DNA from: Cymodocea nodosa
Lineage: Eukaryota; Streptophyta; Magnoliopsida; Alismatales; Cymodoceaceae
Assembly: GCA_036874045.1 (NCBI GenBank)
Contig: CM072343.1
Span: 6,902,001 to 6,966,000, forward strand
Direction: 5' to 3'
Length of the DNA stretch: 64,000 nucleotides
The translations under genes and the position numbers were made by a program. Position 1 is the first letter of the stretch. Every line of letters starts with the position of its first letter. The notes under the pieces were generated by a model that was not told where the DNA came from, ran no database searches, and was given only the letters and a program-made list of their open reading frames with translations. Shown one piece after another: positions 1 through 44,976 of the stretch.

Positions 1-41
1 AAATATTTTTCAATACAAATATAAGTAGACAAACAATACAT

Positions 42-2140
42 TTAGTCCTTCTTCCTAAGTTTATCTACTTCCTTCTAGAGTTTTTCTAGTTGTTATTCTA
101 ATTAATTTATCTGTTCAATAGCTCTTATAATGTCTCTAGAAGGTCCAGCAATCTCAACAGCTGCAGCATTGTAATTTCTGTATTCCTTCACTAAAATGGC
201 TCTAGATCTTATCCTTTTGGATGTCCATTTCGTGAAGTCAATACTGTGTTCCATTAATACTGGTATCAAATCTCCATAAAATAGTTTCTTCTTTGTAGAC
301 TTTATCTTTGACAAGAAGACTTGACACCAGTTAACTTGAATTCTATTTACAATTGCATATGTGGCCCATTTAACAAATTGACTAAGTTCAATGTCATGGC
401 CTTGTCTCTGATAGACAGTTTTAACTAAAATGTTTGCCACCATGTGTGTTTTCCCATTAAATACTTCAGTCTATTCAGTAATGGCACACTAGGGTCGATG
501 GCTAAACATTGCTTGATTGCTTGTTCTATCCATTTAGTTGTAGTTGTATTCTCCAAAATTTCAATACCATCATTTTTCAATCCAAAAATACTGTAGAGAA
601 GCTCTGGTGTTATCTATATATCAGCTTGCTCCACGTTAGAAATTAAATTTCCTTCTTCCTCTCTTAAGTTTGCATAAAAACAAGGCACTAAATTTTCGTA
701 TACAGCATGCCCTTTCTCTTTTGAAATAAAGTTCAGTAGGCCTTGAAATTTGAATAATTCTTTAATCCCCTCCATTCTAGTCCAATCTATTGGCCTACTA
801 TAAATAACATCATACCCCTTTATCTCTTGATATTTGTTGTATGCTTCCTAACTCCAAAAGTATACTTCATTTAGAACTGTTGCTTCAACCGGGTCAGGAA
901 TTTGACTTTGTTGCTCTAGAGGGGTTTGTTCTTGAATTTCCTCTTCAATTTGCTGAACTTGAGCTTGTTGGAAATGATCCAAAGATTCCTACATTTCAGC
1001 CTCTCTTTCTATCTATGGTGGAGAGCTAGTAGAACTCTCCACTCTATCTTGAATTTTTTCAATTAATTGCTGAAGAGTCTTTCCCTCTTTAGTGGAATCT
1101 GTCGAGATATTTCCTTCTTGTTCCTAGTGCTTTTGTTTAGCTTCTTGTTCAGTTTCTTCTCTTTCTCCTTCCTCTTGACTACCAATTTGCATTGTCACTA
1201 TTCTTTTTGATTCTGTGGCAGATTGGGATGGAGTCACGGGTAAATCAGCTTCTGCCCTAATTTCAATTTCTTTTGTTTGTACAGGCTGTAGACTAATTTT
1301 AACCTATTTTTCTTCTTCTCTTTGCTTTTGCTGCTACTACTCCTGCTCCTCCTCAGATTTAGATAGCAGGTTAACAAAAATGAGCTTTGCAGGCCCTCAA
1401 GCCACAAGTACTGGCTCTTCCTATTTTACTTCTTCTATAATTACTAGTCTTAAAGGACCAGCTTCAGTTTCTTTTGCAGCCATTGATCTAGCTGCTTCCT
1501 GATGCTACTCTACTTTAATTTTATATTGGGCCCTCAACTTTTCTTCAACCCGCCTTTTCTTTATGGCATCATATAGAATATGTGCCTTAGCCATAGCCAT
1601 TTCTTCATTATCTCCTTGATCTTTTGCTATTTTGACCAAGCTTGCAAACTCCTTGTCTTCTTCTTCAATTCTCGGCCAAGCAAAAGTTACTCGTTGTAAT
1701 GGTTCTATTGGTGGAACTGAAGGTCCTAGCTGCTATTCCTTAGTGACTAGTTTTTTAGCAATCGGCTCTGTAGCTACAGGTTCTTCAGTTGCTTTCCTTT
1801 GTTGCTCTTAGATTGCCCACTTGGCATGTCCACCAATATGTCGTACGAACTATAATCTGGACTTGCGTCAGATCAATTCTAGGGAAACTTCATTGTTTGG
1901 CTTGATTTTTCTTTCTCTATCCACAGCAACTTCTATTGCTACTTTAATCCTCGTTTCCACAATCTGAGGTATTTTAATATCTACATCTACTAAAACTTTT
2001 CTCCAATAGAAGATGTCAGATTCTACTTTTTGTAGCTCTTTCTCTTGAGTTGTGTTCCTGATCTTTTGTCTTGTATGCCATTCTTCTGATTCTCTGAGAA
2101 ATCTCGTGGTGTCAACTTCCTCCCAGAACTCTAGTATCAT
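42..2140 (-). pseudogene. env-like / plant-transposon-type 3' ORF of element A, broken
   Basis: A degenerate ORF located downstream of integrase, in the position of the env-like ORF of Athila elements. The N-terminal part (1868-2140) is rich in charged residues and begins near MILEFWEE. The middle is Gln/Glu/Lys-rich with many stops. The C-terminal part (42-640) holds a conserved block containing IANIL-like, QRQGHDIELSQ, NRIQVNW and KLFYGD motifs, and ends in a short coiled coil. The same block occurs in Athila copy 2 and in the SIRE elements. It resembles proteins listed as putative plant transposon protein; no signal peptide or clear transmembrane segment is visible, so a true envelope role is not supported. 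Function unknown. The start at 2140 is the first ATG that aligns with copy 2. Confidence 0.7.
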
Positions 2141-2945
2141 CTTGACCTCATGGTGTGATGGAACGGAATGGAATCACTCTGATCTTCATTGTTCTAAGTT
2201 CTAAATGATTCTACAGATAATGCTTCCAAACCCTAAGTTTTAGTAAAAAAAAACCCTAAGTTTTAGGTAGGTAATCGAGTCATTTTCCCATACAAACTCT
2301 CACTATCTCACTCACTTCTCCGTGGAATTACGGTTAACTCCACGAACTAAGTTTGTGGACTTAACTACAATACTCCGTTGAGTTATAGTTAACTCAACAG
2401 AGTAAGTTCGTTAACTTATTCTAGACTCAACGGAGTAAATTCGTTAAGTGTAACTCAACAGACCTCCTGTAAAGTTATAATTAATAAAAGTACTTAAAAT
2501 AATAATTTTTAATTCAATCTAAAGTTATAATTAATAAAAGTACTTAAAATAATAATTTTTAATTTGATCTAGATCGAAGAATTTTCAGTTTGACCGACTC
2601 TTAATTTTTCAACCTTTTAAAATTTTGGTCAAATCGTTATATTCCTTAGTTGAACCGAAATTAAATACTTATTCTGTTTTTTTTTTACTTTTTTTTTTAT
2701 TACCAATTGCACTGATACCATACTTCGGTAAAATCAACATTTTACTTAATATAATATATAGATTTTTTTATATTTTTATGTTTTAGTCAAACCGATGGAT
2801 CCTTTCGATGTGACCGTAATAATATTTTTCTTTTAATATTTGTTTTAGTAAAATCAATAATTTCTTTCGGTTGAACCGTAACTAACTTCAAAATAAGTTT
2901 TTTTTTTACTTTTCTTTTTTTAATACTCAATATATATATTTCTTA
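2141..2945. other. Spacer between integrase and env-like ORF, with palindromic motif clusters
   Basis: Non-coding and AT-rich. Three things stand out. At 2315-2470 is a cluster of inverted motifs of the type GTTAACTCAACGGA / CGTTGAGTTA. At 2471-2570 a 50-bp unit is tandemly duplicated. At 2575-2890 there are repeated GGTTGAACCG / TCAAACCGA motifs. The same three components, apart from the 50-bp duplication, recur in the matching spacer of Athila copy 2 (35790-36513). Confidence 0.75.
2471..2570. repeat. 50-bp tandem duplication
   Basis: Two adjacent near-identical copies beginning aaagttataattaataaaag at 2471 and 2521, differing at a few bases near the right end. Copy 2 of the family has a single unit here, so this duplication is specific to element A. 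Confidence 0.9.
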
Positions 2946-5900
2946 CTAAGTAAAGCTCAAGTAGTCCTCTACTCTCACTTCTTTTATAATTCCAAAGGAA
3001 CTTTTTGGAATTTTCAAAATAGGTCTAAGTCCTTGTCCATTTACTTTAAATATATTCTGATTTTTAGGATTTTCAATTTCAATTGCTCCAAAGGGAAAAA
3101 TATTTCAAATTATGTAAGGTCCTGCCCATCTAGATCTTAGCTTTCCTAGATGGTTATGAAGTCTAGTCATGTAAAGATATACTTCTTGTCCTATTTCAAA
3201 AGTTTTTTGAATAATTTTCTTGTCATGCTAGAACTTCATTTTCTCTTTTTCTTTTACAGTTTTCGAATAAGCTTCATTTCTAAATTCTTCTAATTTAATT
3301 AATTGCATTTTTCTATTTTTAGTAGCTTGATCAAAATTAGTGTTCAGAGTTTTTAATACCTAATAAGCTTTATGTTCAATTTTAGTTGGTAAATGGAAAC
3401 TTTTTCCATATACTAGTCTAAAAGGTGACATACTTAAGTTTGTCTTATAAGTAGTTCTATAAGCCCAAAGTGCATCTATTAATCTATTAGCCAAATCTAT
3501 CCTAGTAGGATTTACTACTTTTTCTAAGATTAACTTAATTTGTTTGTTTGCACTTTCTACTTGTCTACTTGTTTGTAGATGATATGATGTTACAATTTTG
3601 TGATTTACTCCATATTTCTTCATTAAAGCTTCAAAACTTCTATTACAGAAATGAGTTCCTTTATCACTAATAAAAGTTTTAGGTATTCCAACTCTAGCAA
3701 TTATATTAGTTCTTATAAAATGTATTACCACTTTGTTGTCATTAGTTTTTGTAGGAATAGCTTCTATCCATTTAGATACATAATCCACCCCCAACAATAT
3801 ATAATTAAATTGATTAGACATAGGAAATGGACCCATAAAATCTATTCCCCACACATCAAAGATTTCAACCTCAACAATAAGGTTCAGAGGCATCATATTC
3901 CTCTTTGATATTTTTCCTATTTGTTGACATCTTAAACAACTTAAGCAATATTTATGAGTATCTTTGAATAGTGTTGGCCAACAAAATCCACATTGTAGAA
4001 TTTTGGCAGTAGTTTTCCCTAAACCAAAATGCCCTCCACATGCTTGGTCATGGTAGAAAGACAATATGCTCTAATGTTCAGTTTCTGGAACACACCTCCT
4101 TAAAACTAGATCAGGACATTTCTTAAATAAGTATGGGTCTTCCCAGTAGTAATATTTTACTCTTGAAAAGAACAATTTCTTATCCTGTCTATTCCAATCT
4201 TTAGGTGTTAAACCAGTAACTAAGTAATTAACTATGTCTACATACCAAGGTATTGTGTTGATGGTCATTAATTGTTCATTAGGAAAATTATCCTTAATTT
4301 CAATGCTTGATTTTTCTATTTGTAATATTGATAAATGATCTGCTACTACATTCTCACAACATTTTTTATCTTAATTTCTAGATCAAATTCTTGTAATAAT
4401 AATATCCACTAGATCAATATAGGTTTAGTCTCTTTCTTTGCTATTAGGTGTTTTAAAGTTGAATGATCTGTGTATACTATTACTTTAGCTCCAATCAGAT
4501 ATGATCTAAATTTTTCTAAGGCAAACATAGCAGCTAACAGTTCTTTTTTAGTAGTAGTATAATTAATTTGAGCATCATTCAAAGTTTTGCTTGCATAATG
4601 AATCACTTTGAGAGATTTTTCTATCTTTTGTCCCAACATTGCTCCTCCAGCAAAATCAAATGCATCGCACATTAATTCAAATTGATGGCTCCAATCAGGT
4701 GCTTGTATTATAGGAGTAGAAATTAAGCTGGTTTTAAGCTTGAAAAATGCTTCTTTACAATTCTTATCAATGTTGAATGGGACATCTTTTAATAAATTAG
4801 TTAAAGGTTTAGCTATTTTGCTAAAATCTTTAATGAATCTTCTATAAAATCCAACATGTCCTAGAAATGATTTAATATCTTTTACTGATTTAGGTTCTGG
4901 TAGATTAGAAATTACTTCTATTTTAGCTTTATGTACTTCCATCCCTTTCTTTGAAACAACATGGCCCAAGACTATTCCTTGTTTAACCATGAAGTGACAC
5001 TTTTCCCAATTTAAAATCAGATTTTTTTCCACACAGCATTTTAATACTTGGTTTAAATTGTTTAAACACACTTCATATAAAGTTCCATATACAGTAAAAT
5101 CATCCATAAATATTTCTAAAAAATCTTCAGTCATTCCAATGAATATGCCTTGCATACACCTTTGAAAGGTAGCTGGTGCATTGCATAATCCGAATGGCAT
5201 CCTCTTAAAAGCATAAGTTCCATTAAGACATGCGAAAGTTGTCTTCTCTTGATCCTCTATTGCTACTGGAACTTGATTATATCCTAAATAATCATCTAGG
5301 AAACAAAATATTCTTGCCTTGCTAATTTCTCCAACATTTGGTCTATAAAAGATAAGGGAAAATGATGTTTCCTAGTAACAGCATTCATCTTTCTATAGTC
5401 TATACATAATCTCTAGCCTGATTGAATTCTAGTAGGTATCAAGTCCTAACTTTCATTCCTAATAACTATTAATCCTGATTTCTTTGGGACTACATGGATT
5501 GGACTAACCCATGATGTATCAGAAATCAGATAAATTATGTCATTATCTAACCATTTTACTATTTCCTTCCTGACTACTTCTTTAAGGTTAGGATTTAATC
5601 TCCTCTTAGGAATTCTAACAAGTTTAGCATTTTCTTCTAAATATATATAGTGACAGCATAAAGTTGCACTTAACCCTTTTATATTAGTCATAGTCCATCC
5701 TATTACTTCTTTATAAGTTTTTACTACATCTTTTAATTTAGAAATTTGATCCTCTTTTAAATCTAAAGTAATAATGATTGGACATGTTCATTTTTCTTCC
5801 AGAAATATATAGGTTAATTTAGGAGATAAAGGTTTCAATTATAAATGTTGACCATTAGAAGCTAGAGCTCTTAATTGAACATTCTCATCTTCAATATTAA

Positions 5901-6545
5901 ACTCTTCTTGATCTCTTTCTACATCTATGCTTTCACTTACTTTTGACGTTTCAAAATCTAGTTGCCTATTTAATTCTTCTTGAATCACATCATCTAGCAC
6001 ATCGCCCTCATCCTCTAAAAAGTTTATAGTATGTAAGAACATTTCTAACTCCTCAAACTTTTCTAGATTGAAAATGCTTAATTGAGTATCCTCATTACCA
6101 TATGCTAATCTCATCACTCTAGTTTTAACATTTATAACAACCCCTGATGTTGCTAAGAATGGTCTTCCCAAAATTAAAGATGTATCATGATTCTAATGCT
6201 TAATTTGTTGGGAATCCAAAATCACAATATCAATGGGATATATGAAATTTTTGATTTTAATTAGGACATCTTCTATTTTTCCTCTAGGGTATCTTATACT
6301 TCTATTAGCTAATTGAATGACAGTCCTAGTAGGGATTAAGCCTTCTAATCCTAAGGATGCAAATATATCACTAAGAATAACATTTATACTTGCACCTAGG
6401 TCTATTAAGGTTCTTTCTAGAATGGTATTTCTTATGGTGTATGATATAATAGGAATTCCAATATCAGATAACTTTTTAGGAATTTATGGTAGAAATAGGG
6501 AACTACTTTGCTCAGCTAAAAATACTTTCCTTAAAACTTTTTGCT
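2946..6545 (-). pseudogene. pol: Athila pol (protease, RT, RNase H, integrase), broken
   Basis: Decayed polyprotein with domains in the usual Ty3 order. Protease (about 6170-6440) has the Athila-style DLGA active site. RT (about 4950-5760) keeps RLNPNLKEVVRKEIVKWL and FMDDFTVYG. RNase H (4430-4720) has the MCDAF and [18 protein letters not shown] blocks. Integrase (3360-4064) shows the HHCC zinc domain (HDQACGGHF ... CLSCLRC), the first Asp in WGIDFMGPFP, the second in ISDKGTHF and the Glu in [10 protein letters not shown]. The C-terminal tail (2946-3360) ends VRVEDYLSFT. Stops and frameshifts split it into at least five pieces; the long readable fragments are 3360-4064, 4409-5200 and 5839-6171. 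It would copy and insert the element if intact, but is not functional as written. Confidence 0.9.
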
Positions 6546-7594
6546 CTCTTTTCTTAGTACACCAATCCTTAAGAAATTTAGCACAATGTGGCATTTTCTG
6601 CAATAAGTCTAACAAAGGATGTTAACTTGTACTTTTTCAAAAATTTCTCTAATTCTTTCTTGTTTTTCAGGAAATGTTTATTGTAATCTTTCAAGATAGG
6701 GTACTAATGATTGTGATTTACAAGATTATTTTTCTTTCATTTGATTCGGTTGATCATTTTTAATCTCATTTTCAAATTCAGATTTTTCTTCATTGATTTC
6801 TAAGTTTTCAGATATTACATTTTCATTATCATTTTGAATTTTGTTCTTATCCACCTTCATATTACTTTCTCTTTGAATTCTTGGTGGTATATCATTTCCA
6901 GATCTTAATGTTATACATACATCTTCTAGATTTTCATTACTTTCATGATGTTCTTGTATTTCATTTTCGTGATTATGATCTTCAATTGTTTTCAGTTTTA
7001 AATTACATTCTTTAAATTCTATTGCATTGGTATTTTCTTTTGTCTAAATATCTTGCAAATTATGCGCTTCTGTAACATTAAAGTTTTCATTTGTATTTTC
7101 CTATTGCATAACTTGTAATTTCATTGTAAATTCATCCAATGCTTTTAATTTTCTTTCCAAATCATCTAATCTCATTGCATTCAATTTTTGATCGATTTTC
7201 ATTATGGTTTTTTCAGTTTCGTATATGATATCAATTTTAGGTTATGAATATTCTTCCCTATAATTTAATTGGTTGACTTCTTATTGCTAATACATGTATT
7301 GTTCTGGTTTGTCTATGTTTTACTCTAAGCTACGCTCCAGTCTGTTATACCTATCCCAAACTTCCTTGTCTCTCAACATATTACACATTCTAAATAGACC
7401 ATTAGTCAGGTAAACTATAGGATTCTCATACTCAGCTCTATTAATTGAATATAATTCATTTGTTGTTCTTATGATCTAACCATCTGCAATTGTCTCAGTT
7501 TCAAACAATCAAAGATGTCATGACCTTCCAAATTGTAAAATTCACATATGATAACTATAGGTTTCAGAAATCTTTGAGCGTAAGCATATGTCAT
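6546..7594 (-). pseudogene. Short zinc-knuckle gag-like ORF upstream of protease, broken
   Basis: Between the PBS and the protease lies about 1 kb of decayed coding sequence aligned with 45079-46128 of element B. It starts near MTYAYAQRF and has a zinc-knuckle-like block, CEFYNLEGHDIFDC, in which the second ligand of a C-x2-C-x4-H-x4-C motif reads Tyr. The rest is Asn/Glu/Lys-rich. No capsid domain of the kind seen at 18384-19727 is present. The start was chosen by alignment with the ATG of element B. It may be the nucleocapsid remainder of gag. Confidence 0.6.
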
Positions 7595-7676
7595 ATTCTC
7601 AATTAGAAAATAAAACACACAACCCTCCTTCTGATATTAAAACAAAATAGCACTCATAGTTGCTTAGCTTCTCAAT

Positions 7677-7694
7677 TCCTCGACAACGGTGTTA
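7677..7694 (-). other. Primer binding site (tRNA-Asp type), mutated
   Basis: On the minus strand the sequence ACACCGTTGTCGAGGA lies about 7 bases inside the LTR end, where Athila elements have TGGCGCCGTTGCCGGGGA, complementary to the 3' end of tRNA-Asp. The first bases are changed relative to element B (44977). It fixes the LTR/internal boundary and the element's orientation. Confidence 0.75.
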
Positions 7695-7701
7695 GAAAAC
7701 T

Positions 7702-8375
7702 TGTATTGGTTGTAAAAGGTTAAATCAGAAACTTGCTTGATTTTTTTATGCCTATATTAATAAATTCTCTTAGAAGTAAACAAACAACTTTTCACACAAA
7801 TTAGATATGAAGTCTAATTTGTATTTTAAACTACAAATGCACAGTGTATATTGTATGTGTGTGCAAGTACAGGTCGATCCCATAAAGATTGAGTAAGAAT
7901 TGTGTACTGTTTCGATTTTTATATTGGAGTTTATATGTGTTCAGTAAAGCACTCCATTGAGTTACAGTTAACCCAACGAACTTAGTTCGTGGAGTTATAG
8001 TTAACTCAACAGACTAACCTCGTGCACTTAAGTTAACTCCATGAGCCTATTTTTACAATTAAATACTGTTATTTACAAAGGAATTCGGCCAACCATTGGG
8101 CGATTCCACAGAATGTAAATAACATCAATTAAGCTATTTAATGTTAGTTAATTTTAGATTTTTCATTAAGCAACACTAACATTCAAGTATTTCAAATAGT
8201 AACCCATAAAATCTTTAAGTATCTCGAACAATTCAATTTTCAGTAAACTATAAAACTATTTTCTTTTTTCTAAATCAAGCAAACATAAAACATTCAAAAT
8301 ACTGACAATGATAATATTAATCACGATACAAAGTAAACAATACAACACTTTAATACTAAATGTAAACACATATAA
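7702..8375 (-). repeat. 5' LTR of element A, U5-side part
   Basis: This is the end of the LTR next to the PBS, aligned with 13478-14150, 26140-26790 and the reverse of 44300-44969. It ends ...CAATACA at 7702 on the minus strand. It holds a CGTTGAGTTA-type motif cluster at about 7950-8045 and the conserved block around ggccaaccattgggcgattc. At 8375 it stops abruptly at SIRE-1; the missing remainder, expected to begin tataatttgttg, was not found to the right. Confidence 0.85.
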
Positions 8376-8650
8376 TGTAGGATCGTATGGCTACACAAAA
8401 GGGGGGTGAATTGTGTATTTTTAATATTTTCTGAAATATAATTGAAACTTTAAAACACAAAAATAAGTCGAGACATTGTTTTCATAAAATCATTTTTATT
8501 CAAGGTTTCAATTACAATATACAATTCAATTCTCCTCAGAAATTGTAGATGCAATTATATTTCGATACCATGTATCATTTAAACAATTTCATAACTACAA
8601 ATAGAGAAAACTAATTTGCAGAATTTAAAACTTTTCTCCCTGTTTGAGAT

Positions 8651-13477: not shown

Positions 13478-14395
13478 TGTTCGTGTTTTCCCAACACTAC
13501 ACTAGAAAAACTTGGATTTGTTACTTCTATTTTTACTTAGTTAATTTATCTTTATGCCTATTCTTTATTTTAGAAGTAAACAAACAACCTTTAATACAAT
13601 TTAGATATTAATTCCAATTTGTACTTTAACTGCAAGAGCACAGTGTCTATTGTATCAGTGTGCAAGTACAAGTCGATCCCACAGGGAATTGCTAACGAAT
13701 TTAAGAAATGTTTGATTGTGAACAATTCAAATTTATATTCAATAAGCACTCTGTTGAGTTATAGTTAACTCAACGGACTAAGTTCGTTGAGTTATGAATA
13801 ACTCAACGGACTATCCTCGTGGACTTAAGTTAACTCCACAAGCCTGTCTCTTCTTTATAATACTGCTAATTACAGAGGAATTCGGCCAACCATTGGGCGA
13901 TTCCATAGATTGTAAATAACATCAATTAAGCTTTTTAATGCTAGTTAACATTGGATTTATCATTATGCAATACTAACATTCAGATGATTCAAACATTAAC
14001 CATTAAAATCTTTAAGTTGTTTTGTACAAACCAATTTCAGTAAACTGTAAAATTAAAACTAACATAAAACAATCATAAAACTGATACAGATAACATTAAT
14101 CATGATACAACACCAACAATACAACACTCAAATACAACATACAAACAAAGACAAATTGTTTTTGGTATTTTTGTTTTGATGTGAGGGCGAAAGGTGAAAT
14201 GTAAAGTAATTTCACTTGATAGTAAATACTCCCGACACTACTTGCAACCCGATTACACCACTGAAAATTGAACCACTTACAATTCTGTCTCCTCTCCCTA
14301 TAGAATCGCGAGTCCAGAATTGCAAGATGATCTCCTCTTCAGCATATAGGCATCAACCCGAAGCCAAGGTTAAAAGCTTTACGATCTCCTGAAAT

Positions 14396-14686
14396 ATGAG
14401 TCGGCGCTTGGTGAAAATGTATTTCCTTCCCGCGACGCGATCACTCCTCATAGTGGTTGTCAGGCACTATGTTTGGCTCGGAATCGACCCGACATCAGGC
14501 AAGTATCCTCACAGACCTCCGATGATTGGTGATTATGGTGGTGATACGATGGTTGGTGTGATACTTCGGAGAATCGCCGATATTGTCTGCAGAAAGCTCG
14601 ATGCTCCTCCTCTATATACACTGGCTGTCCATCGATCACACCTTTTCTTTTTTGTCTTCTTTTCTTTTTTATTTCTTCAGTGGTAA
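14396..14686 (+). CDS. Small ORF antisense to the LTR, recurrent in other copies
   Basis: An ORF of 96 codons on the strand opposite to the element. Its first 50 residues (MSRRLVKM ... LPATRSLL ... GIDPTSGKYPHRPP) reappear in the same antisense place in the LTRs at 27051 and 43699-44040, and with substitutions at 37666. The tails differ completely. It may only reflect conservation of the LTR leader on the sense strand; I do not recognise the protein. Confidence 0.3.
   Translation: MSRRLVKMYFLPATRSLLIVVVRHYVWLGIDPTSGKYPHRPPMIGDYGGDTMVGVILRRIADIVCRKLDAPPLYTLAVHRSHLFFFVFFSFLFLQW
14612..14618 (-). promoter_or_regulatory. TATA box of Athila copy 1 LTR
   Basis: TATATAG on the minus strand within the LTR. 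The same motif is at 43820-43826 in the LTR of element B, while copy 2's 3' LTR lacks it through a small deletion/replacement near 27235. Implies an R-U5 region of about 1.1 kb. Motif-based inference. Confidence 0.5.
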
Positions 14687-15330
14687 CTGCTTCTGCTTGA
14701 ATGGTCGGTTGGATTTCCTTCCTTCAGATCAACGACGATGATTTCTTTCTCCCTACGCGATTGAATTCCTACGTGATACGTACAAACGTGGTTTTTCCTT
14801 TCAACTGTTTGTTCCTGCAACCGCTATAGTGGCATATTAGAAAATATATAGTCTGTGGAGTTACAGATAACTCAACGGACTTCCTTCGTTGATTTAACTA
14901 TAAAACACGTGCAAAAATAACAACTTAAGTTTATAACGCTAACCTAACGCGTTGCCTTAGTGTATTTTCATGTAACTCAACGCGTGTAGTTATACTAACT
15001 TAACGAGTTATAATGTAAGTAAATCTACCAACTCTCAACACGTGTCAACAGCAGTTTAAACATAAAATAACATTCCAGAGAGTTACAGGTATAACTATCC
15101 GATGCTCAGATGCATTTTCGGATACTTAAGAATTTCACAACCTGCAATTTACCGACAGTTCATAAATGTACTAAATTAACATTAATTCCCCAAAATTAAG
15201 CAGATTCATCAATTAAAGCATATAACAGTGCAATTATAACATAATGGCTTAATTCTCATATGATAAGCTAAATATTATGCAATTAACCATCATTTAACCG
15301 TTAATAATATGCACTTTTTCATTCTAAACA

Positions 15331-15345
15331 TTTCCCCCATACCTA
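15331..15345 (-). other. 3' polypurine tract of Athila copy 1
   Basis: GGTATGGGGGAAA on the minus strand directly abutting the LTR start TGTTTAG. It is preceded by a block ending ctagcaaaatttaggta. Confidence 0.85.
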
Positions 15346-17043: not shown

Positions 17044-18189
17044 TCACAGCTTAAGAACATGATTGAAAGTAGAAACAAATGGAATAAATGTATCAGTCCA
17101 AGCAAACTTTTTAGGCATAATTCTTCTTGCTATTAATTCTGTTTTAATGCAGTTCTTCGTCCTTTTTAATTTGTAAACATGCAATATATTATAAATTCCA
17201 AATACGAGTATATTACCATTAATGATATGTAATACAGAAAGGGATCCTTTTTGGTTCCAAGGTAATGTAGCAGTTTCTATTTCTACATCTATTTCAATAT
17301 ACTCCTCTTCCCACTTCCATTCATTCATGTCTTCCATAATCCATATTTGAAATTTCATTAGTTCATCCCACCATCTTATCAAACATAAAGTAGGATCATC
17401 TTTTTCATTATACCACATTCCTATGTGAATTTTATTAAATTATTCAGACGGTGGTTTAGCTATTTCACTCGGTATAGGTAAAATTTCTGTATAATCATCA
17501 TAACTGTCTATGCTCACTATGTATAAATTAGATCTATATGCTATTGATATCTCCGTGACTAAATAAATTTAACCATCAAGTATGACATGTGTTTGGTTAA
17601 TTAATGATTTCTGCCCTAGATATATTATAATGTTTTCATTCCAAGATCTGTTCAGAAAATTATACACACTTAAGCGTAAATCTTCACCCCAATTTCCTGT
17701 AGGTCTCCAATAATATAATTTTTCAGGAATTGCAGAATTTTTATCAGAAAATATTAAAGCTGACCAACAATTTTCAGTTGGTGCTTCAAATATATTAGGT
17801 CTTCCTATATTACATTCTTCTCCTATTATAGGATTTCTTATCAAAATCTCAGGTAATGATAAACTTGCATACATTGGTCTCGTCTTGTATATGATTAATC
17901 CTTCATCTATCCCCATAATATGACTCATTCCTTCTAATGCATTGGGTGGAATTCCAGTAGTTTCTTCCATAGCTAGATATTCATGGGTATTTGAACTACG
18001 ATTAAATAACCTCCATATGAATCCATCTCTAATCTTAGTCATTTTTGCAGCTTGTAGTCCTTGAAAATATTTTTCTTCAATACAGTCTTTAATTTCCTTT
18101 GATACACAACACATCCTGCACAGATCTTTAGCTGACAAGTTACTTAGTATTTCCCTTTGTGCATCCAACGGTAATTGCATTAATTCCAT
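17044..18189 (-). pseudogene. F-box protein gene carried by the retrotransposon (copy 1)
   Basis: A reading frame of 382 codons including the stop, in one frame throughout, with two in-frame stops near 17570 and 17437. Residues 5-45 form an F-box (LPLDAQREILSNLSAKDLCR followed by CCVSKEIKDCI). The remainder is Trp/Tyr-rich (KLYYWRPTGNW, SVYNFLNRSW, GMWYNEKDDPTLCLIRWWDE) and resembles an F-box-associated domain. F-box proteins are substrate receptors of SCF ubiquitin ligases. It starts 195 bp after the gag stop on the same strand, inside the element, with a palindromic motif cluster in the gap. It is intronless. A second diverged copy is at 29909-31048. Target unknown; that it is captured cargo is inferred from its position in both copies. 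Confidence 0.82.
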
Positions 18190-18383: not shown

Positions 18384-19727
18384 TCATTCAGCTGCCCTCC
18401 CAGAAGAGGTATCAATTTCATTAACCGTTCTATTGACAGGATTAGGTATAGCTTATATTGGCAATCCTCCAATAGGTCTAACTTCCATTGGTTCCTTCTG
18501 TCTAAGTGGTATATTTCTATTCTGATTTTGATTTACAGCATTTCCAAATATAAATTCTAGACGATTGTTTACTTGTTGGATTATCTTTTCTAATTTCTCT
18601 ATTCTAGCTCTTTGTTCAATTAATACTTCATAACTTATGTTCTTCTCATTTATATTTTCTCCTCCCTGGAAATTGTTGTTTCTCCAAGATAAATTCGGGT
18701 GATTTCTCCAATTAGGATTATAAGAATTTCCTAAGTTATCTCTCTGGTTTCTAGCATAAATAATATCTAAGTCATTTATGTTTGTATTCTTTTCTGCTAG
18801 CTTTTGATTTAATGATAACTCTTCTATTTTCTTTGTTAATTCATTTAATTTCACCTCAAGCATAGTATTGGAATCTATTTCATGCATTCCTCTTGGAAAT
18901 AATCTTTTATCTGCAATAGCTTCAGCCGAATTTTCCCACTGTGTAGTTCTTTTTGCAAAATTTTCTAAATATGTCTATGCTTCTTTACTACATAATTTTA
19001 AAAATCCATTTTGACAAGTAGATTCTAATAAAGATTTCGTTGAAACATCTATGCCTTCATAAATTATGCCTATTAATTGTGCTTTACTCATTGCATGATG
19101 TGGACATTGAGTCAGTAAATCTTTAAATCTTTCAAAATATTTCCAAAATGATTCACCCTGTTTTTGGCTACACATTAATATTTCTTTCTTCTTTTTAATC
19201 GTTTGATGTGTTGGATAGTATTTTTCCAGAAAAACAAAGCAAAATTCAGTCCATGTAGAAATTGAATCAGGCGACAGAGTATATAACCATCTCTTAGCTG
19301 TATCTTTTAAAGCAAAAGGGATATATCTAAGTTTAATAGCATCTATACTCATGTTCGGCATTCTCATCATTTGACAAACTTCGTTAAATTCTCTAGGGAA
19401 ATAATAGGCATCCTCTCTTTCTAATCCATGAAAATGTGGCAATTGACTAATATAATTAGATTTCAGTTCAAACCTATCTCCCTCAAAGTTTGGCAATCGA
19501 ATACATGAAGGTTCATTAATTAATTCAGGATACAGAATCTCTCCTAATGGTTTTTCTACTGGAGCAGCCATCTCTACGTTCTCTTTTAAAGAAAGGTTAG
19601 CTACACCCCAAAGAATTTCGTTAAAATTTAGTTCAGAAAATTTTTCAGTACCCCTCTACAATGAAAATTCCTGGATAGGTGTTCTTACTAATCGTTTAGT
19701 GCTTAGAGAACGAGTCCATGTGCTCAT
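18384..19727 (-). pseudogene. gag: Athila gag (capsid) gene, copy 1
   Basis: One frame of 448 codons with a few in-frame stops (around 19661, 18975 and 18453). The capsid domain (residues about 75-235) shows LPHFHGLEREDAYYF, ALKDTAKRWLYTLSPDSIS, EKYYPTHQT and GESFWKYFERFKDLLTQCPH, the usual Athila gag signature. Downstream come NPNWRNHPNLSWRNN, a typical Athila gag C-terminal phrase, and a coiled coil (LIEQRARIEKLEKIIQQVNN). The start at 19727 (MSTWTRSL) was chosen because the alignment with copy 2 extends to it. The next gene is the F-box gene, not protease as in standard Athila. Confidence 0.88.
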
Positions 19728-25956: not shown

Positions 25957-25959
25957 CTA

Positions 25960-26139
25960 TGTGAACATTCGAAAAGAATTCGTTGGGGGGCAAACCTGAA
26001 TGCCCACGAATGACGCCAACACCCCACCAACGTGAACCCAAAAGGGGCCTACATTAGTGTAAAAAGAGTCGCCACCTAGTCCATTAAAGGGAGACTAGAA
26101 AAACCTGCACTATCGATCTCTCATGTATCAAGGGACCTA
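25960..26139 (-). repeat. U5 end of Tat/Ogre-type LTR, truncated
   Basis: About 180 bp ending ...TTCACA on the minus strand. It contains a second GGCGACTCTTTTT phrase at about 26055-26072, a feature of Tat/Ogre U5 ends. It breaks off at about 26139, where an Athila LTR begins. Confidence 0.6.
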
Positions 26140-28102
26140 TATTGATTTGTTAACTTCTGTTTAATTCGTCTTTATGCTTATATCAATAATTGCTTTTAGA
26201 AGTAAACAAACAACCTTTCACACAGATTAGATATTAATTCCAATTTGTGTTTTAACTGTAAGTACATAGTGTATATTGTATTTGTATGCAAGTATAGGTC
26301 GATCCTATAGAGAGATGGAGTAAGAATTATGTACTATTTCGATTTTTATATTGGAGTTTATGTGCTCAGTTAAGCACTCCATTGAGTTATAGTTAACATA
26401 ACGGACTTAATTCGTTGAGTTATGGCTAACTCAACAGACTAATCTTGTGGACTTAAGTTAACTCCACGAGTCTAATTTTTCCAGTTAAATATTGTTAATT
26501 ACAGAGGAATTTGGTCAACCATTGGGCGGTTCCATAGAGTGTAAATAACATCAATTAAGCTCTTTAATGTTAATTAACATTAGATTTATTATTAAGCAAC
26601 ACTAACATTCAGATATTTCAAACAGTAACCATTAAAATCTTTAAGTATCTGAATGAATCAATTTCAGTAAATTATAAAACTATTTTCTATTTCTGAATCA
26701 TACAAACATAAAACATTCACAATATCGACAAGGATAACATTAATCATGATACAAAACAAACAATACAATACTTTAATACTAAATGTAAACATAGATAATT
26801 TGTTGTTTTTGGTATTTTTGTTTTGATATGTTCTTGAAGATGAATGAAAGGTGAAATGTAAAAATCTCTATCAATAGTAAAAACTTCTATCACTACATAC
26901 GACATGATTACACCACTAAAAACTTAAACACTTACAATCCTGCCTCCTCTCTCTATAGAATTGCGAGTCCAAAATTGCAAGATGATCTCCTCTTCAACAT
27001 ACTAGCATCAACCCGAAACCAAGGCTAGAAGCTTTACGATCTCCTGAGATATGAGTCGGTGCTTGGTGAAAATGGCTTCTCTTCCCGCGACGCGATCACT
27101 CCTCACAATGGTTGTTAAGCATCGTGTTTGGCTCAGAATCGACCCAACATTAGGAAAGTATCCTCACAGACCTTCGATGGTTGGTGATTATGGTGGTGGT
27201 ATGGAGCTTCAGGGAACTTCCGACGCTTCCTATAGTTAGCGCGGTCCTCCACCCTTTGCACACACTATTTTTCTTTGTCTTTCATATTTCTTACAATAGT
27301 AACTGCTCCTGCTTAGATGATCGGTTGGATTTCCTTCATTCATATCAACAATGGTGATTTCTTCTTCATTCCATGAGTGAATTCCTACGTGATACGTGTA
27401 ATCATGGTTTTCCTTTGAATGTCCTGTTTCTGTAACTGCTATAGTGGCATATTAGTAAATATATGGTCCATGGAGTTACAGATAACTCAACGGACTTACT
27501 TTGTTGATTTAACTATAAAACACATGCAATAAAGAAATAAGCTGCTAACATAACATGTTACCTTAGTATGTATTCATGTACTCAATGCGTATAGTTATGC
27601 TAACTTAACGAGTTATACATGTGCATCTCACGTGACATAATAAAGCATTTAAATTCAACACGTGCATAAATCTAACTTAACGAGTTCAGATATTTCACAT
27701 ACTTACGACCTTAACTATTCGATGCCCAGATGCATTTCAGATAGTTATTAGATAACCTTCTGAACATTCACTTAAGTCATACATTAAGGTTTCTACATGT
27801 GTACTTTAGGAAATAATAAAATATTCTTTAAGCATTTAAAACTTAATTGTCTGGTACATTAAACATAACTCTCCGAAATAACAGAAAATTCAGATACTTA
27901 AGGATTTCACAACCTGTAATTCACCGACAGTCCAGAAATGTACTAAATTAACACTAATTCCTTGCAATTATGCAGATTCCTTCATTAAAGCATAAAACAA
28001 TGCAATTATAACATAATGGCTTAATTCTCATATGATAAGCTAAATATTATGCAATTAACCATCATTTAACCATTAATATTATGCACTTTTTCATTCTAAA
28101 CA
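26140..28102 (-). repeat. 3' LTR of Athila copy 2
   Basis: Minus strand start TGTTTAGAATG at 28102. The last roughly 30 bp at the U5 side are missing and the sequence joins the Tat/Ogre-type fragment. Motif clusters at 26375-26470 and 27465-27690. The TATA region of the other LTRs is altered. An antisense ORF (27051-27239) matches the first 50 residues of the one at 14396. Confidence 0.85.
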
Positions 28103-29908: not shown

Positions 29909-31048
29909 TTAAGAACATGATTGAAAAGTAGTAACAAACGGAATAAACGTGTTAGTCCAAGCAAACTTTTTAGGCATAATTCATCTTTCTATTAATTCTA
30001 TTTTAATGCAGTTCACTTTCCTTTTTAACTTGTAAACTTGCAGTATGTTATCAATACTAAATATGAGTGTATTTCCATTAATGAATTGAAATGTAGAAAG
30101 GGATCCTCTTCTATTCCAAGATAATGTAGTTGTTTCTATTTCTACATCTATTTCAATATATTCCTCTTCACAATTCCATTCACTTAGGTCTTTTATAATC
30201 CATATTTGAAATTTCCTCAATTCATCCCACCATTTGATCAGACATAAGGTAGGATCATCATATTCATTATACCACATTCCTAATTGAATTTTATCATATT
30301 CTAAAGATGGTGGTTTAGCTATATCACTAGGTATAGGCAATATTTCTAAAAAGTATTCATCATAACTATTTATGCTTACTATGTATAATTCATATCTAAA
30401 TGCAATTGATATATTTGTGACTAAATATGTACATCCATCAAGTATGACATCTATGTTGTTAATTAATGCTTTCTGACCTAGATATATCATAGTATTTTCA
30501 GTCTAAGATTTATTCAGAAAATTATACATACTTAAGCATAAATCCTCATCCCAATTTCCAATTGGTCTCCAATAATATAATTTTTCAGGGATGGTCAAAT
30601 TTTTATCGGAAAATGTTAAAGCTGACCCACAATTTTTAGTTGACACTTCAAATCTATTTGGCCTTCCTATATTCCATTCTTCTCTAGTGATAGGATTTCT
30701 AATCAAAATATTAGGTAACAGAATTGCATACCTTGGTTTGGTTTTGTAAATAATTAATCCTTCGTCTATTCCCATAATATGATCTATTCCTTCTAATGTA
30801 TTGGGTGGAATTCCAGCAGTTTCTTCCATATTTAGATATTCATAGTTGATTGAACTACGATTAAATGACTTCCATAAAAATCCATCTCTAATCTTAGTCA
30901 TTTTTGTAGCTTGTAGTCTATGAAAATACTTTTCTCTGACATAGTCTTTGATTTCCTTCGATATGCAACACAATCTACATAGATCTTTAGCTAACAGGTT
31001 ACTTAGTACTTCCCTTAGTGCATCCAATGGTAATTTCATCAATTCCAT
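29909..31048 (-). pseudogene. F-box protein gene carried by the retrotransposon (copy 2)
   Basis: Same length and frame as the copy at 17044-18189. Residues 1-45 contain the F-box (MELMKLPLDALREVLSNLLA followed by CCISKEIKDYV), then the Trp/Tyr-rich region (YYWRPIGNWDEDL, LGMWYNEYDDPTLCLIKWWD). There is one in-frame TAG at about 30513, where copy 1 has Trp, a TGA at 29981, and a one-base insertion near the end. The two copies differ at many residues spread over the protein but stay aligned without internal frameshift over some 350 codons. This suggests coding constraint before decay, which I have not measured. Confidence 0.8.
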
Positions 31049-31259: not shown

Positions 31260-32588
31260 TCATTCAGCTTTCCTCCCATAGGAGGTATCAATTTCATTAA
31301 TAGTTCTGTTGATAGGGTTAGGTACTACTTGCATTGGCAATCCTCTAGTAGGTCTAACTTCTATTGATTCCTTCTATCTAGGGGGTATATTTCTATTCAT
31401 ATTTTGATTTTGAATTGCACCATTTCCAAATACAAGATCTAGACGATTGTTTAATTGTTGAATTATCTTTTCTAATTTCTCTATTCTAGATCCTTGTTCA
31501 ATTAATGCTTCATAACTTATATTTTTGTCATTTATATTTTCTCCTCCCTAGAAATTATTGTTTCTCTAAGATAAATTCGGGTGATTTCTCCAATTAGGGT
31601 TATAAGAATTTCCAAAGTTATCTTTCTAGTTTCTAGCATAAATAATATCTAAGTCATTAACGTTTGCATTCTTTTTTGCTAGCTTTTGATTTAATGATAA
31701 CTCTTCTATTTTCTTTGTTAATTTAGTTAATTTAACTTCAAGCATAGTGCTTGAATCTATTTCATGCATTCCCCTTGGTAATATTCTTTTATTTGTAATA
31801 GCTTCAATTGAGTTTTCCCACTATGCAGTTCTTTTTGTAAAGTTTTCTAAATATGCCTATGCTTCTTCACTATATAGTTTTAAAAATCCATTCTGACAAG
31901 TAGATTCTAATAAAGATTTTGTTGAAACATCTATACCTTCATAAATTATACCTATTAATTGTGCTTTATACATTGCATGATATGGACATTGAGTCAGTAA
32001 ATCTTTAAACCTTTTAAAATATTTCTAGAATGATTCTCCCTATTTTTGGGTACACATTAATATTTCCTTTTTCTTTTTAATCGTTTGATGTGTTAGATAA
32101 TATTTTTCTAGAAAAACAGAGCAAAATTTAGTCCATGTAGAAATTGAATCAAGCGACAAAGTATATAACCATCTCTTAGCTATGTCTTTTAAAGCAAAAG
32201 GGATATATCTAAGTTTAATAGCATCAATACTCATGTTCGGCATTTTCATCATTTGACAAACTTCGTTAAATTCTCCAATGAAATAATAGGCATCTTCTCT
32301 TTCTAATCCATGAAAATGTGGCAATTGACTAATATAATTAGATTTCAATTCAAACCTATCTCTCTCAAAGTTTTGCAATCGAATACATGAAGGTTCATCA
32401 ACTAATTTAAGATACAAAATTTCCTCTAATGGTTTTTCTACTAGAGCAGCCATATCTTCATTCTCTTTTAAAGAAAGGTTAGCTACACCCCTAAGGATTT
32501 CGTTAAAGTCCAATTCAGAAAATATTTCAATACGCCTTTGTGTTGAATAATCTTGTGTAGGTGTTCTTACTAATCATTTAGTGCTCAT
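31260..32588 (-). pseudogene. gag: Athila gag (capsid) gene, copy 2
   Basis: Frame of 443 codons with several stops. The capsid part (32040-32513) has FELKSNYISQLPHFHGLERE, YFIGEFNEVCQMMKMPNMS and ALKDIAKRWLYTLSLDSIS. The NPNWRNHPNLSW phrase is partly preserved near 31580. The start at 32588 (MSTK) aligns with copy 1. Gag stands between the env-like ORF and the F-box gene. Confidence 0.85.
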
Positions 32589-33572: not shown

Positions 33573-35789
33573 TTAATCTTTCTTCCTAAGTTCATCTACT
33601 TCCTTCTGGAGTTTTTCTAATTGTTGCTCTAATTGATTTATCCTCTCTACAACTCCAATAATGCCTCTAGAAGGTCTAGATACTTCAGTAGCTGCAGCAT
33701 AATTTCTGTATTCTTTCACTGACATGGCTCTAGAATTTATCCTTTTGGATGTCTATTTTGTGAAATCAATATTATCCACCATCATTAGTGGAATCAAATC
33801 TCCATAAAATAATTTCTTCTTTACTACTCTTAGTTTGGAGATAAAAACTACAAACCAATTAACTTGAATCTTATTCACAACTGCATATGTGACCCATTTG
33901 ACAAACTGACTTAATTCAATATCATGGCCTTGTCGTTGGTAGACATTTTTAATCAAAATGTTAGCTATCATGTGTGCTTTACCATTTAAGTGCTTCAATC
34001 TATTTAATAATGGCACACTAGGATTGATAGCTAAACTGTCCATAATTTCTTTCCATTCATTTCTCAATCCTAAAATGTTGTGGAGAAGCTCTAGTGTTAT
34101 CTGTACATCAGCTTGCTCCACCTTGGAAATTAATCCACTTTCTTCTTCTCTCAAATTTGCATAGAAGTAGGGCACTAGATTCTCATATACTACATACCCT
34201 CTCTATTGAGAAATAAATTGCAATAGACCCTAGAACTCAAATAAATCCTTAATTTCCTACATACCATCCTAGTTTACTGGTCTACTGTAAATAATATCAT
34301 AACCCCTAATCTCTTGATATTTATTATATGCTTCCTGACTCCAAAAGTGTACTTCATTCAAAACTATTGCTTCAGTCAAGTCAGGAATTTGAATTTGTTA
34401 TTCCTAAGGGGTTTGTTCTTGAATTTCCTCTTTCATGTGTTGAACTTGAATTGGCTGGGAATGCTCTAGAGATTCCTGCATTTTTGCTTCTACTTCTGTC
34501 TATAGTGGTGAGCCAGCAGAACTCTCCACTCTATCTTGAATTCTTTCAATTAATTGCTGAAGAATCTTTCCCTCTTCAGTGGAATCTGTCAAGTCATTTC
34601 CTTCTTATTCAATATGTTCTTATTCAGCTTCTTATTTAGTTTCTTCTCTTTCTTCTTTCTCCTGACTACCAATCTGCATTGTCACTATTCTTTTTTATTC
34701 TGTGGCAGATTGGGATGGAGTCATGGGTAAATCAGCTTCTACCCTAATTTCTGTTTCTTCTAGTTGTACAGGCTGTAGATTAGTTTCAGCCTATTTTCCT
34801 TCTTCTCTTTGCTCTTGCTGCTGCTACTCCTACTCCTCCTCAGAATCAAATAGCAGGTTTTCAAAAATTGGCTCTACAGGCCTTACTAATATTGTAGGCT
34901 TGGGTTTAATCTCTTCTTGATGCTCAAGCACTATCTCTTTTCCTTTTTTTCTTCTAATTAATTGTTCCTAATCTTCCTCTTCCTCATCTGAGATTAAATC
35001 TACAAAAATAGGCTCTATAGGCCCTTGAGCCACAAGTACTAGCTCTTCTTGTTTAACTTTTTCTATAATTGCTGGTCTCGAAAGACCAACTTTAGCTTCT
35101 CTTGCAGCACTTGATCTAGCTGCTTCCTGATGTTGCTCTATTTTAATTTTGCATTGGCCTTTCAACTTTTCTTCTACTTGCCTTCTCTTTATGGCATCAT
35201 ATACAATATGTGTCTTGGCTATAGCCATTTCTTCATTATCTCCTTGGTCTTTTACTGTTTTGACCAAGATAGCAAACTCTTTATCTTCTACTTTAGTTCT
35301 TGGCCAAACAAATGCTATTCGTGATAATGGCTCTATTGGTGGAACTAAAGGTTCTGGCTGTTGTTTCTCAGGGATAGGTCTTTCAGCAGTCGGTTCTTGT
35401 TGTTCTTTAGTTGCTTGTTCTTCATTTCCTTTCCTTTGTTGCTCCCAGATTGCCCACTAAGCCCGTCTACCTATGCATCTTTTGAACCATAATCTAGCCT
35501 TGAATTGGATTAGCTCTAGGGCAACTTCATTATTTAGCTTGATTTGTCTTTCTCTATTTACAGCAACTTCTGTTGCTACTTTGATTCTCGTTTCCATAAT
35601 CTGAGGTATTTTTATGCCTAAATCCACTAACACTTTCCTCTAGTAGAAAATGTCAGATTCTACCTTTTGTAGCTCTTTTTCCCTCGTTGTATTTCTGATC
35701 TTCTGCCTCGCGTGCCACTCCTTCGATTCTTTAAGAAATTATGACGTGTTAACTGCATCCTCCCAAAATTTTGGTGTCATCTTTGTCAT
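33573..35789 (-). pseudogene. env-like / plant-transposon-type ORF of Athila copy 2
   Basis: Starts near 35789 (MTKMTPKFWED). An N-terminal region rich in Lys and Glu (IRNTTREKELQKVESDIFY), a middle region with KLKGQCKIKIEQHQEAARSS and an acidic end (DLISDEEEED, near 34968). Then a broken Gln/Glu-rich linker, and the conserved block at 33753-34175: ELLHNILGLRNE, MIANILIKNVYQRQGHDIEL, NKIQVNWF, KKLFYGD. It ends in a coiled coil (INQLEQQLEKLQKEVDELRK). Several stops. Homologous to the ORF at 42-2140 and, in the conserved block, to the SIRE ORF. Function unknown. Confidence 0.72.
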
Positions 35790-36513
35790 TGTGGAGTTAC
35801 GAAACAGAATGGAATCGCTTTACTCTCTACTATTCTAAGTTCTAAATGATTCTACAGATAATGCCCCCAAATTCTAAGTTTTAGTATAAATAAGCCCTAA
35901 GTTTAGGTGGGTAATTGGGTCAATTTCTCGCGCAAACTCTTGCTCTCTCATCTACCTCTTCGTGGAGTTACGGTTAACTCTACGGACTAAGTCCATGGAC
36001 TTAACTATAGTACTCCGTTGAGTTATAGTTTACTCAACGAGGTAAACTCGCTAACTTATCCTAGATTCAACGGAGTAAGTTCGTTGAGTTAAGTGTAACT
36101 CAACGGACTTCCCGTAAAGTTATATCTAATAAAAATACTTATAATAATGATATTTACTTCGGTCAATACCGAAGAATTTCTAGTTTAACAGACTCTTAAT
36201 TTTTTAGCATTTTAGAATTTTTGGTCAAACCGTTATATTCCTTGGTTGAACCGAAATTAATTACTCTCCTTTTTTTCTTACTGATTGAACCGATACTATG
36301 CTTCAGTAAAACTGACATTTTTACTTAATATAATATATAGATTTTTTTATGTTTTTATGTTTTGATCAGACCAATGAATCCTGTCGGTTGAACTATAATG
36401 ATTTTTTTTTCTTTTAAAATATGTTTTAGTAAAACCAATAATTTCTTTTGGTTGAACCGTGATTATGTTTAAATAAGGTTTTCTTTTTTTTTTAAGAAAC
36501 ACTTAGGTAATTT
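35790..36513. other. Spacer between integrase and env-like ORF, copy 2
   Basis: Motif cluster of the GTTAACTC / CAACGGA type at 35960-36110 and GGTTGAACCG / AAACCGA motifs at 36180-36470, in the same order as in element A (2141-2945). Confidence 0.75.
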
Positions 36514-36860
36514 CTAAGTAAAGCACGAGTAGTCCTCTACTCTTACTTCTTCTATAATTCCACAAGAACTTTTTGGTATTTTCAAAATAGGACTAAGTCT
36601 TTGTCCATTTACTTTAAATATGTTCTGATTTTTAGGATTTTCAATTTCAATAGCTCCATAGGGATAAATATTTCGAATTATGTAAGGTCCTGCCCATCTA
36701 GATCTTAATTTTCCTAAATGGTTATGGAGTCTAGTCATGTAAAGATATACTTCTTGTCATATTTCAAAGGTTTTTGGAATAATTTTCTTGTTATGCCAAA
36801 ACTTCACTTTCTCTTTTTCTCTTACAGTTTTCAAATAAGCTTCATTCCTAAATTCTTCTA
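36514..36860 (-). pseudogene. pol: Integrase C-terminal remnant of Athila copy 2
   Basis: Encodes MTRLHNHLGKLRSRWAGPYI, then KVNGQRLSPILKIPKSSCG and the end VRVEDYSCFT. This is the tail of Athila integrase. Everything before it has been lost and position 36860 joins LTR sequence. Confidence 0.85.
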
Positions 36861-37127
36861 ATTCAACAAATTGATCTCATGGACTTAGTTTGTTGAGTTA
36901 TGGCTAACTCAATAGACTGATCTCGTGGACTTAAGTTAACTCCACGAGTCTAATTTTTCCAATTGAATATTGTTAATTACAAAGGAATTTTTCTAATTCA
37001 ACAGATTGATCTCATGTACTTAGTTTGTTGAGTTATGGCTAACTTAACAGACTGATCTCGTGGACTTAAGTTAACTCCACGAGTCTAATTTTTCAAGTTG
37101 AATATTGTTAATTACAGAGGAATTCGA
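36858..37127. repeat. 135-bp tandem duplication at the deletion junction
   Basis: Two copies, starting ctaattcaac at 36858 and 36993, each spanning the end of integrase sequence and the LTR motif cluster. Because the unit contains the junction, the duplication came after the deletion. Confidence 0.85.
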
Positions 37128-44969: not shown

Positions 44970-44976
44970 AGTTTTA

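What the first reader, a model, noticed from the sequence alone, without database searches (positions are those of the whole stretch)
17044..18189. An F-box protein gene is carried inside an Athila-type retrotransposon, in two independent copies
The sequence shows a 380-residue F-box plus Trp-rich associated region between gag and the 3' LTR, on the element's own strand, at the same place in copy 1 and copy 2 (29909-31048). F-box proteins are SCF ubiquitin-ligase receptors. Polerovirus P0 is a known case in which a mobile genetic agent uses an F-box protein against Argonaute. Inference: the gene is captured cargo that has travelled with the element, and it might act on host silencing or on element proteins. 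I know of no described plant LTR element with gag followed by an F-box gene.
Basis: partly seen in the sequence, partly recalled or inferred. Interest (0 to 1): 0.9.

Follow-up and report, generated by a model that had tools for sequence, protein, structure and literature searches.

The report
Retrotransposon carrying its own F-box gene
A very common plant jumping gene in this genome carries its own gene for a protein-destruction adaptor (an F-box protein), apparently kept by selection, in an element whose capsid gene sits at the back instead of the front.

Summary
The F-box gene is real, lies on the element's strand directly behind a gag gene, and occurs in two independent insertions in the window. 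Both window copies are broken (two in-frame stops each). Two copies is a large undercount: the window's own genome (374.6 Mb) gave 5,574 first-look candidates, and the 150 scored are all 92-100% identical over residues 1-205 or 1-206. Gag lies just upstream in 27 of the 30 best loci; 14 of 30 keep the 379-codon frame open. Between diverged copies dN/dS is 0.19-0.45 for the N-terminal 206 codons and 0.19-0.96 for the C-terminal part. So it looks like a resident, selected gene, not passing cargo.

The larger surprise is the element. Behind the 5' LTR comes a zinc-knuckle ORF and polymerase without capsid; capsid gag stands behind integrase and the env-like ORF, then the F-box.

Most likely the protein joins the host SCF ubiquitin ligase and lowers something that limits the element; action on silencing is untested. 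Ten searches of an open-licence library listed no such element.

The parts
17044..18189 (-). F-box gene, copy 1, broken by two in-frame stops
29909..31048 (-). F-box gene, copy 2, broken by two in-frame stops
18453..19655 (-). capsid-type gag (PF03732), copy 1, no zinc knuckle, broken
31332..32540 (-). capsid-type gag, copy 2, broken by several stops
15331..15344 (-). polypurine tract next to the 3' LTR, copy 1
13478..15330 (-). 3' LTR of copy 1
26127..28102 (-). 3' LTR of copy 2 (its 3' end is approximate)
36883..38716 (-). 5' LTR of copy 2, truncated and fused to the end of integrase
36514..36873 (-). C-terminal end of integrase in copy 2 (by alignment to the window's other elements)
33574..36510 (-). 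env-like region of copy 2 (weak PF20167 at 33753-34202)
42785..44969 (+). 5' LTR of a polymerase-bearing relative
44977..44991 (+). primer-binding site of that relative
45010..46128 (+). zinc-knuckle (NC-like) ORF and linker without capsid domain
46129..47967 (+). protease (weak) and reverse transcriptase
48862..49436 (+). integrase core
7..8376 (-). second polymerase-bearing relative: partial LTR, NC-like ORF, polymerase, integrase, env-like ORF, cut by the window edge

Best explanation
The F-box gene is a resident gene of a high-copy Athila-like LTR retroelement family with the order LTR - PBS - NC/protease/RT/integrase - env-like - capsid gag - F-box - PPT - LTR. SHOWN: the order, the abundance, open frames in many copies, and selection at the protein level. 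INFERRED: the protein is a substrate adaptor. Its N-terminal F-box binds host Skp1 within an SCF ubiquitin ligase and its C-terminal part picks a target, so that the element uses the host's own degradation machinery to lower a protein that limits its copying. The most likely target is a host defence or silencing protein; second is a protein of the element itself, such as the capsid now made from the gene next door.
For: F-box above Pfam cut-off in both window copies and in 4 of 4 intact genomic copies scanned. A profile of 10 copies gives only two PDB hits, both weak (E 0.63-0.64) and both F-box only protein 4, aligned on the F-box. Window pair: dN/dS 0.39, bootstrap 0.28-0.56; 96 amino-acid differences against 117.9 (sd 5.1) in neutral simulation, 0 of 2000 as low; transversions only, 50 non-synonymous of 70 against 60.8 (sd 2.7), 0 of 3000. 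Eight retro-borne copies, 28 pairs, N-terminal 206 codons: dN/dS 0.19-0.45, dS up to 1.1. Frame of 379 codons open in 14 of 30 best loci, one of these without its ATG. Gag upstream in 27 of 30 F-box loci, F-box downstream in 7 of 8 gag loci.
Against: No binding, expression or small-RNA data. FBA_1 stays below cut-off where it appears. C-terminal part: 15 pairs with dN/dS 0.19-0.96, the higher values in pairs with L003. In the window pair the first 100 residues, which hold the F-box, show no signal on transversions (8 of 9 non-synonymous, expected 7.9), and transitions alone are weaker (47 of 3000). The genome lists hold the copies most like the query, which biases bulk ratios. The structure model was unusable.
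Confidence: 0.6

Rival explanations
1. The F-box protein acts on the element itself: as an SCF adaptor it sets the level of capsid, integrase or env-like protein, replacing the dosage control that a gag-pol fusion normally gives.
For: Capsid gag is a separate gene right in front of the F-box, and the two are usually found together. In the copies seen, capsid and polymerase no longer share one ORF, so other dosage control may be needed (inference).
Against: No direct evidence for any target.
Confidence: 0.25
2. Passive captured host gene: a host mRNA was copied into one element and has hitch-hiked since without a role.
For: LTR elements do pick up host genes (PMC7264820, first part and passages read; PMC13317346, passages read). 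The frame shows no obvious intron. Some C-terminal pairs have high dN/dS.
Against: dN/dS 0.19-0.45 in 28 N-terminal pairs; neutral simulations; frame open in 14 of 30; present behind gag in 7 of 8 gag loci.
Confidence: 0.07
3. Non-autonomous gag-plus-F-box element without polymerase, mobilised in trans.
For: In copy 1 only gag, F-box and 3' LTR are left in the window.
Against: 20 upstream pieces: integrase or its C-terminal end in 19, env-like ORF in 18; no LTR end or PBS leader between these genes and gag in the 18 pieces that lead to a gag.
Confidence: 0.03
4. The 3' position of gag and F-box is an accident of nesting or recombination in this window.
For: The window is heavily nested, copy 2 has no recognised target-site duplication and its 5' LTR is fused to integrase.
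Against: Same order at places on many contigs. The 5' ends examined lack capsid: 6 of 6 NC loci, one of them in the window, L050 and the second window copy.
Confidence: 0.03

Closest known systems
Athila / Calypso / Diaspora lineage of plant Ty3-gypsy elements (PMC1142308, passages read)
   Same: LTRs with PBS and PPT, protease-RT-integrase order, in most members an env-like ORF behind pol; the passages describe Diaspora as one gag-pol ORF with a CX2CX4HX4C zinc finger in gag
   Different: Here capsid gag stands behind the env-like ORF, the zinc knuckle stays at the 5' end with pol, and an F-box gene follows gag
Orchid Ty3/Gypsy elements with an AlkB-type m6A demethylase (PMC9289625, passages and section 12 read)
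   Same: A host-type regulatory domain fixed as an additional gene in a plant Ty3/gypsy family
   Different: Tat/Ogre relative with a single gag-pol ORF; demethylase, not F-box. Their screen of 121 angiosperm genomes reports 15 extra domains at its n5 filter; 'F-box' does not occur in the main text. Its supplement was not seen
Bs1 of maize and other LTR-captured genes (PMC13317346, PMC3726574, PMC7264820, passages read)
   Same: Host gene sequence inside an LTR element
   Different: The passages say that Bs1's segments lack full-length ORFs (PMC13317346) and that transduced genes occur in one or a few copies (abstract of PMC7264820); here the gene is a regular part of a large family
Polerovirus P0 F-box silencing suppressor (recalled; no paper read)
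   Same: F-box protein made by a mobile genetic agent
   Different: RNA virus with a known target; no sequence link was tested

Membership tests
Ty3/gypsy LTR retroelement, Athila-like | LTRs TG...CA with PBS and polypurine tract | tested here: met
   of the six NC loci the strict PBS pattern matched in 3
Ty3/gypsy LTR retroelement, Athila-like | reverse transcriptase upstream of integrase | tested here: met
   PF00078 and PF00665 in that order
Ty3/gypsy LTR retroelement, Athila-like | env-like ORF between pol and 3' LTR | tested here: inconclusive
   a conserved ORF is there; PF20167 in 3 of 4 pieces scanned, E 1.4e-4 to 5.7e-4, all below Pfam's cut-off
Ty3/gypsy LTR retroelement, Athila-like | gag with capsid at the 5' end, in front of protease | tested here: not met
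   only the zinc knuckle is at the 5' end; capsid gag is behind env
Ty3/gypsy LTR retroelement, Athila-like | RT falls in the Athila clade of a tree | not tested
   no reference RT set on hand; the label rests on layout and PBS as recalled
F-box protein | F-box domain above curated score | tested here: met
F-box protein | known C-terminal substrate domain (FBA_1) above curated score | tested here: not met
   13.5-16.1 bits against 21.1 where it appears; absent at E <= 1 in 3 of 4 intact copies
F-box protein | binds Skp1 and enters an SCF ligase | not testable with these tools
   needs a binding assay
Captured host gene | a chromosomal donor gene outside the element | tested here: inconclusive
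   7 of the 8 best PF00646 loci belong to the family, 6 of them with gag seen upstream and L007 with the element's 3' region; L005 has no match to it; only best candidates are scored
Non-autonomous gag-only element | no polymerase genes | tested here: not met
   integrase in 19 of 20 upstream pieces
Polerovirus P0-like silencing suppressor | acts on Argonaute | not testable with these tools
   needs an assay

The most novel reading that the evidence does not exclude
A large, recently active family of plant LTR retroelements has broken the gag-first rule: nucleocapsid stays fused to polymerase at the 5' end, capsid has become a separate gene behind the env-like gene, and a ubiquitin-ligase adaptor follows it as a regular gene. 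Env, capsid and F-box may each be expressed from a downstream signal of their own, perhaps the LTR-like palindromic units in front of them.
Probability: 0.5. Interest if true: 0.92.

Novelty: new variant of a known kind. Interest (0 to 1): 0.85.

Why it matters
A retroelement that keeps its own F-box gene under selection would be a direct case of a genomic parasite steering the host ubiquitin system, and its target could be sought with ordinary binding assays. Its copies make up 7 of the 8 best F-box domain hits of this genome, so they could inflate F-box gene counts. A split gag with capsid at the 3' end questions the assumption, built into element annotation and models of particle assembly, that capsid is made first and in one polyprotein with nucleocapsid and polymerase.

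Tried and rejected
A protein database search with the F-box gave nothing (1402 candidates, none at E <= 0.01); that database may lack plants. Scans of viral contigs with F-box, gag and RT pieces found no relatives. Rfam (gathering threshold) and tRNA scans of the window were empty. The AlphaFold model of copy 2 was too poor to use (mean pLDDT 33.9), so no fold search was made. PDB search with the copy 1 piece gave three unrelated hits at E 0.88-1.6, and with the two-copy alignment none.

Dropped: the stop shared by both window gag copies as a real end of capsid. In 22 of 24 anchored loci that codon is not a stop, so it is best read as parallel decay. I first took gag behind that stop as neutral (amino-acid differences 38 against 38.05), but its transversions are fewer than in the flanking non-coding stretches (14 in 172 codons, against 104 in 1653 positions of the 3' stretch), so I make no claim. 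Dropped: a non-autonomous gag/F-box element. Not decided: whether the stretches 15480-16297 and 28210-29186 came from a copia element or are older.

The overlap of the two 150-hit lists (40 shared places, all on one strand; Chapman 555) is only a rough lower guide to copy number, since both lists favour copies like copy 1.

Full report
What the finding says, and what is there. The frame at 18189->17044 on the minus strand begins with an F-box that passes Pfam's cut-off, and the frame at 31048->29909 does too. The two are about 75% identical over the first 206 residues. Each frame has two in-frame stops, so neither window copy is a working gene. The only named domain behind the F-box is FBA_1, below its cut-off and only in copy 2. 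A capsid-type gag (PF03732) lies directly upstream on the same strand in both copies; a polypurine tract and an LTR beginning TGTTTAG lie downstream.

Independence of the two window copies. Copy 1's LTR ends in ACA and is followed by a sequence that is uninterrupted near 57650, so it is an insertion into that sequence. Copy 2 is bounded by two LTRs of 92.3% identity whose differences are 119 transitions and 11 transversions; the five other LTR pairs compared have ratios of 1.5-1.7. That is the pattern of two LTRs identical at insertion and decayed since. Copy 2's flanks look like the two parts of another LTR, followed at about 25955 by a stretch that I recall as a Tat/Ogre-type primer-binding site; no target-site duplication was recognised. 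The 3' LTRs of copies 1 and 2 are 80% identical.

Order inside the window elements. In copy 2 the minus strand reads: truncated LTR, C-terminal end of integrase, env-like ORF (weak PF20167), gag, F-box, polypurine tract, LTR. The two polymerase-bearing relatives in the window (42785-49436 plus strand, 8376-7 minus strand) show LTR, leader, a zinc-knuckle ORF, protease and RT, without a capsid domain in front. This suggested that capsid gag and F-box sit at the 3' end of one element.

The genome answers. The window lies at C15:6902001-6966000 of a 374.6-Mb assembly. The first 206 residues of copy 1 gave 5,574 first-look candidates; the 150 scored match at 92-100% identity (two stop at residue 205) on 23 contigs. 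The gag query gave 6,438 candidates and 150 scored at 92-100%. A DNA query gave 2,571 candidates and 40 scored, all at 98% or more. Forty places are in both protein lists, all 40 with both genes on one strand and with start coordinates 1335-1468 bases apart, gag first. In the 30 best F-box loci (one is window copy 1) gag lies upstream in 27; the exceptions are L014, L016 and L018. In 8 gag loci (one is window copy 1) the F-box lies downstream in 7; the exception is L041. Among the 8 best hits of the Pfam F-box model in the genome, 7 belong to this family; L005 does not. The most diverged that could be followed, L001 (57% identity), also has gag (70% identity) upstream, with an LTR lodged between. 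L007 is rearranged and no gag was seen in its 1.5-kb flank.

What stands in front of gag. Twenty pieces of about 5.3 kb were read (L047-L066; two, L051 and L054, belong to F-box loci without gag). Integrase or its C-terminal end is present in 19 of 20 (not L056) and the env-like ORF in 18 of 20 (not L050, L063). No LTR end or primer-binding leader lies between these genes and gag in the 18 pieces that lead to a gag; LTR ends were found only in L050, L053 and L056, further upstream. L063 reads protease, RT, integrase, gag.

What stands behind the 5' LTR. In 6 of 6 loci fetched with the NC-like ORF (L067 is the window copy) the LTR is followed by the leader, the NC-like ORF and protease, with no gag match at E 1e-3; the strict PBS pattern matched in 3 of the 6. 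L050 shows the same start. A zinc knuckle was found in these 7 loci, with the last cysteine replaced by tyrosine in 2. In the 3' gag no zinc knuckle was found in 24 of 24 loci that could be anchored, of 29 tried. An unbroken 400-codon gag stretch exists in L021. So the parts of an ordinary Gag are divided between the two ends of the element.

Selection on the F-box. Window pair: dN/dS 0.39, bootstrap 0.28-0.56. Neutral simulation: 96 amino-acid differences against 117.9 (sd 5.1), 0 of 2000 as low. Transversions only, which decay after insertion hardly touches: 50 non-synonymous against 60.8 (sd 2.7), 0 of 3000; transitions: 60 against 70.7, 47 of 3000; the first 100 residues alone: transversions 8 against 7.9, transitions 18 against 22.8. 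The gaps in the aligned frame are two of 3 bases, one of 1 base near the end and a 7-base terminal offset. Eight copies, 28 pairs (two of them close pairs), N-terminal 206 codons: 0.19-0.45, dS up to 1.1; C-terminal part, 15 pairs: 0.19-0.96, with the three highest values in pairs with L003. Among 29 of the best loci the ratio of mean dN to mean dS is 0.49 for both parts at mean dS 0.04-0.06, and 0.72 for gag in 26 loci; these bulk figures mix unselected decay and list bias. For comparison, protease-RT of the two window polymerase copies gives 0.33 and the gag N-terminal part of copies 1 and 2 gives 0.30. Fourteen of 30 best loci keep 379 codons open; one of these has lost its ATG.

Age. The 29 best copies average 97.6% identity in the F-box stretch, which points to recent activity; I give no date because the rate would be from memory and the list favours similar copies.

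How it may work. Shown: layout, abundance, selection. Inferred: SCF adaptor, because the F-box domain is conserved. Least certain: the target. With capsid outside the polyprotein a need for dosage control is conceivable, the basis of the self-regulation rival. A recurring feature is a palindromic unit (GTTGAGTTA - 4 nt - TAACTCAAC, with variants): 128 half-sites with up to one mismatch in the window against 22.3 expected from a first-order model. They lie in the LTRs and in the spacers before env, gag and F-box; one lies between gag and F-box in 18 of 30 genomic loci. It may be a promoter or processing signal, or simply a repeat tolerated in spacers.

Literature. Ten searches of an open-licence library listed no LTR element family with an F-box gene and no element with gag behind pol; the library omits most subscription journals, and I saw listings and passages, not whole texts. 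Read: PMC7264820 (first of three parts, plus passages), PMC9289625 (passages and section 12), and passages of PMC1142308, PMC13317346, PMC3726574, PMC11963269, PMC12786077 and PMC8764390. PMC8764390 mentions an LTR-gene in the F-box family of Thlaspi arvense that was tandemly duplicated; it is given as part of a host gene family.

Limits. Counts are of best-scored copies. The Athila label is by layout and recall, not by tree. The RNase H step of the order was not tested.

Noticed in passing
13753-13839, 14855-14896, 18260-18282, 31134-31176, 32956-33116, 35962-36104, 2335-2398, 9178-9344, 51627-51795: Palindromic units (GTTGAGTTA - 4 nt - TAACTCAAC and variants, often about 33 bp apart) in the LTRs and in spacers before env, gag and F-box; between gag and F-box in 18 of 30 genomic loci. 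Function unknown.
   Followed up: partly
36851-37124: A tandem duplication of about 135 bp at the place where copy 2's 5' LTR is fused to the end of integrase.
   Followed up: partly
8370-13477 and 50781-57651: Two copies (about 85-87%) of another region with a weak env-like match (PF20167, E 0.012) and several ORFs.
   Followed up: no
57365-58361, 42397-42785, 28210-29186, 15480-16297: A stretch of up to 1 kb behind two copia elements is 72-77% like the region between F-box and 3' LTR of both F-box copies. Which way it moved is open.
   Followed up: partly
25700-26141 and 38717-39869: Copy 2's flanks look like two parts of a Tat/Ogre-type LTR followed by a PBS-like stretch (label recalled); what follows, to 19946, includes a weak gag match at 21626-21871.
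   Followed up: partly
31332-32540: The many in-frame stops of copy 2's gag have the look of decay of methylated cytosines.
   Followed up: partly
L001-L008: Seven of the eight best F-box domain hits of the genome are copies of this element's gene, so F-box gene counts from this genome may be inflated by it.
   Followed up: partly
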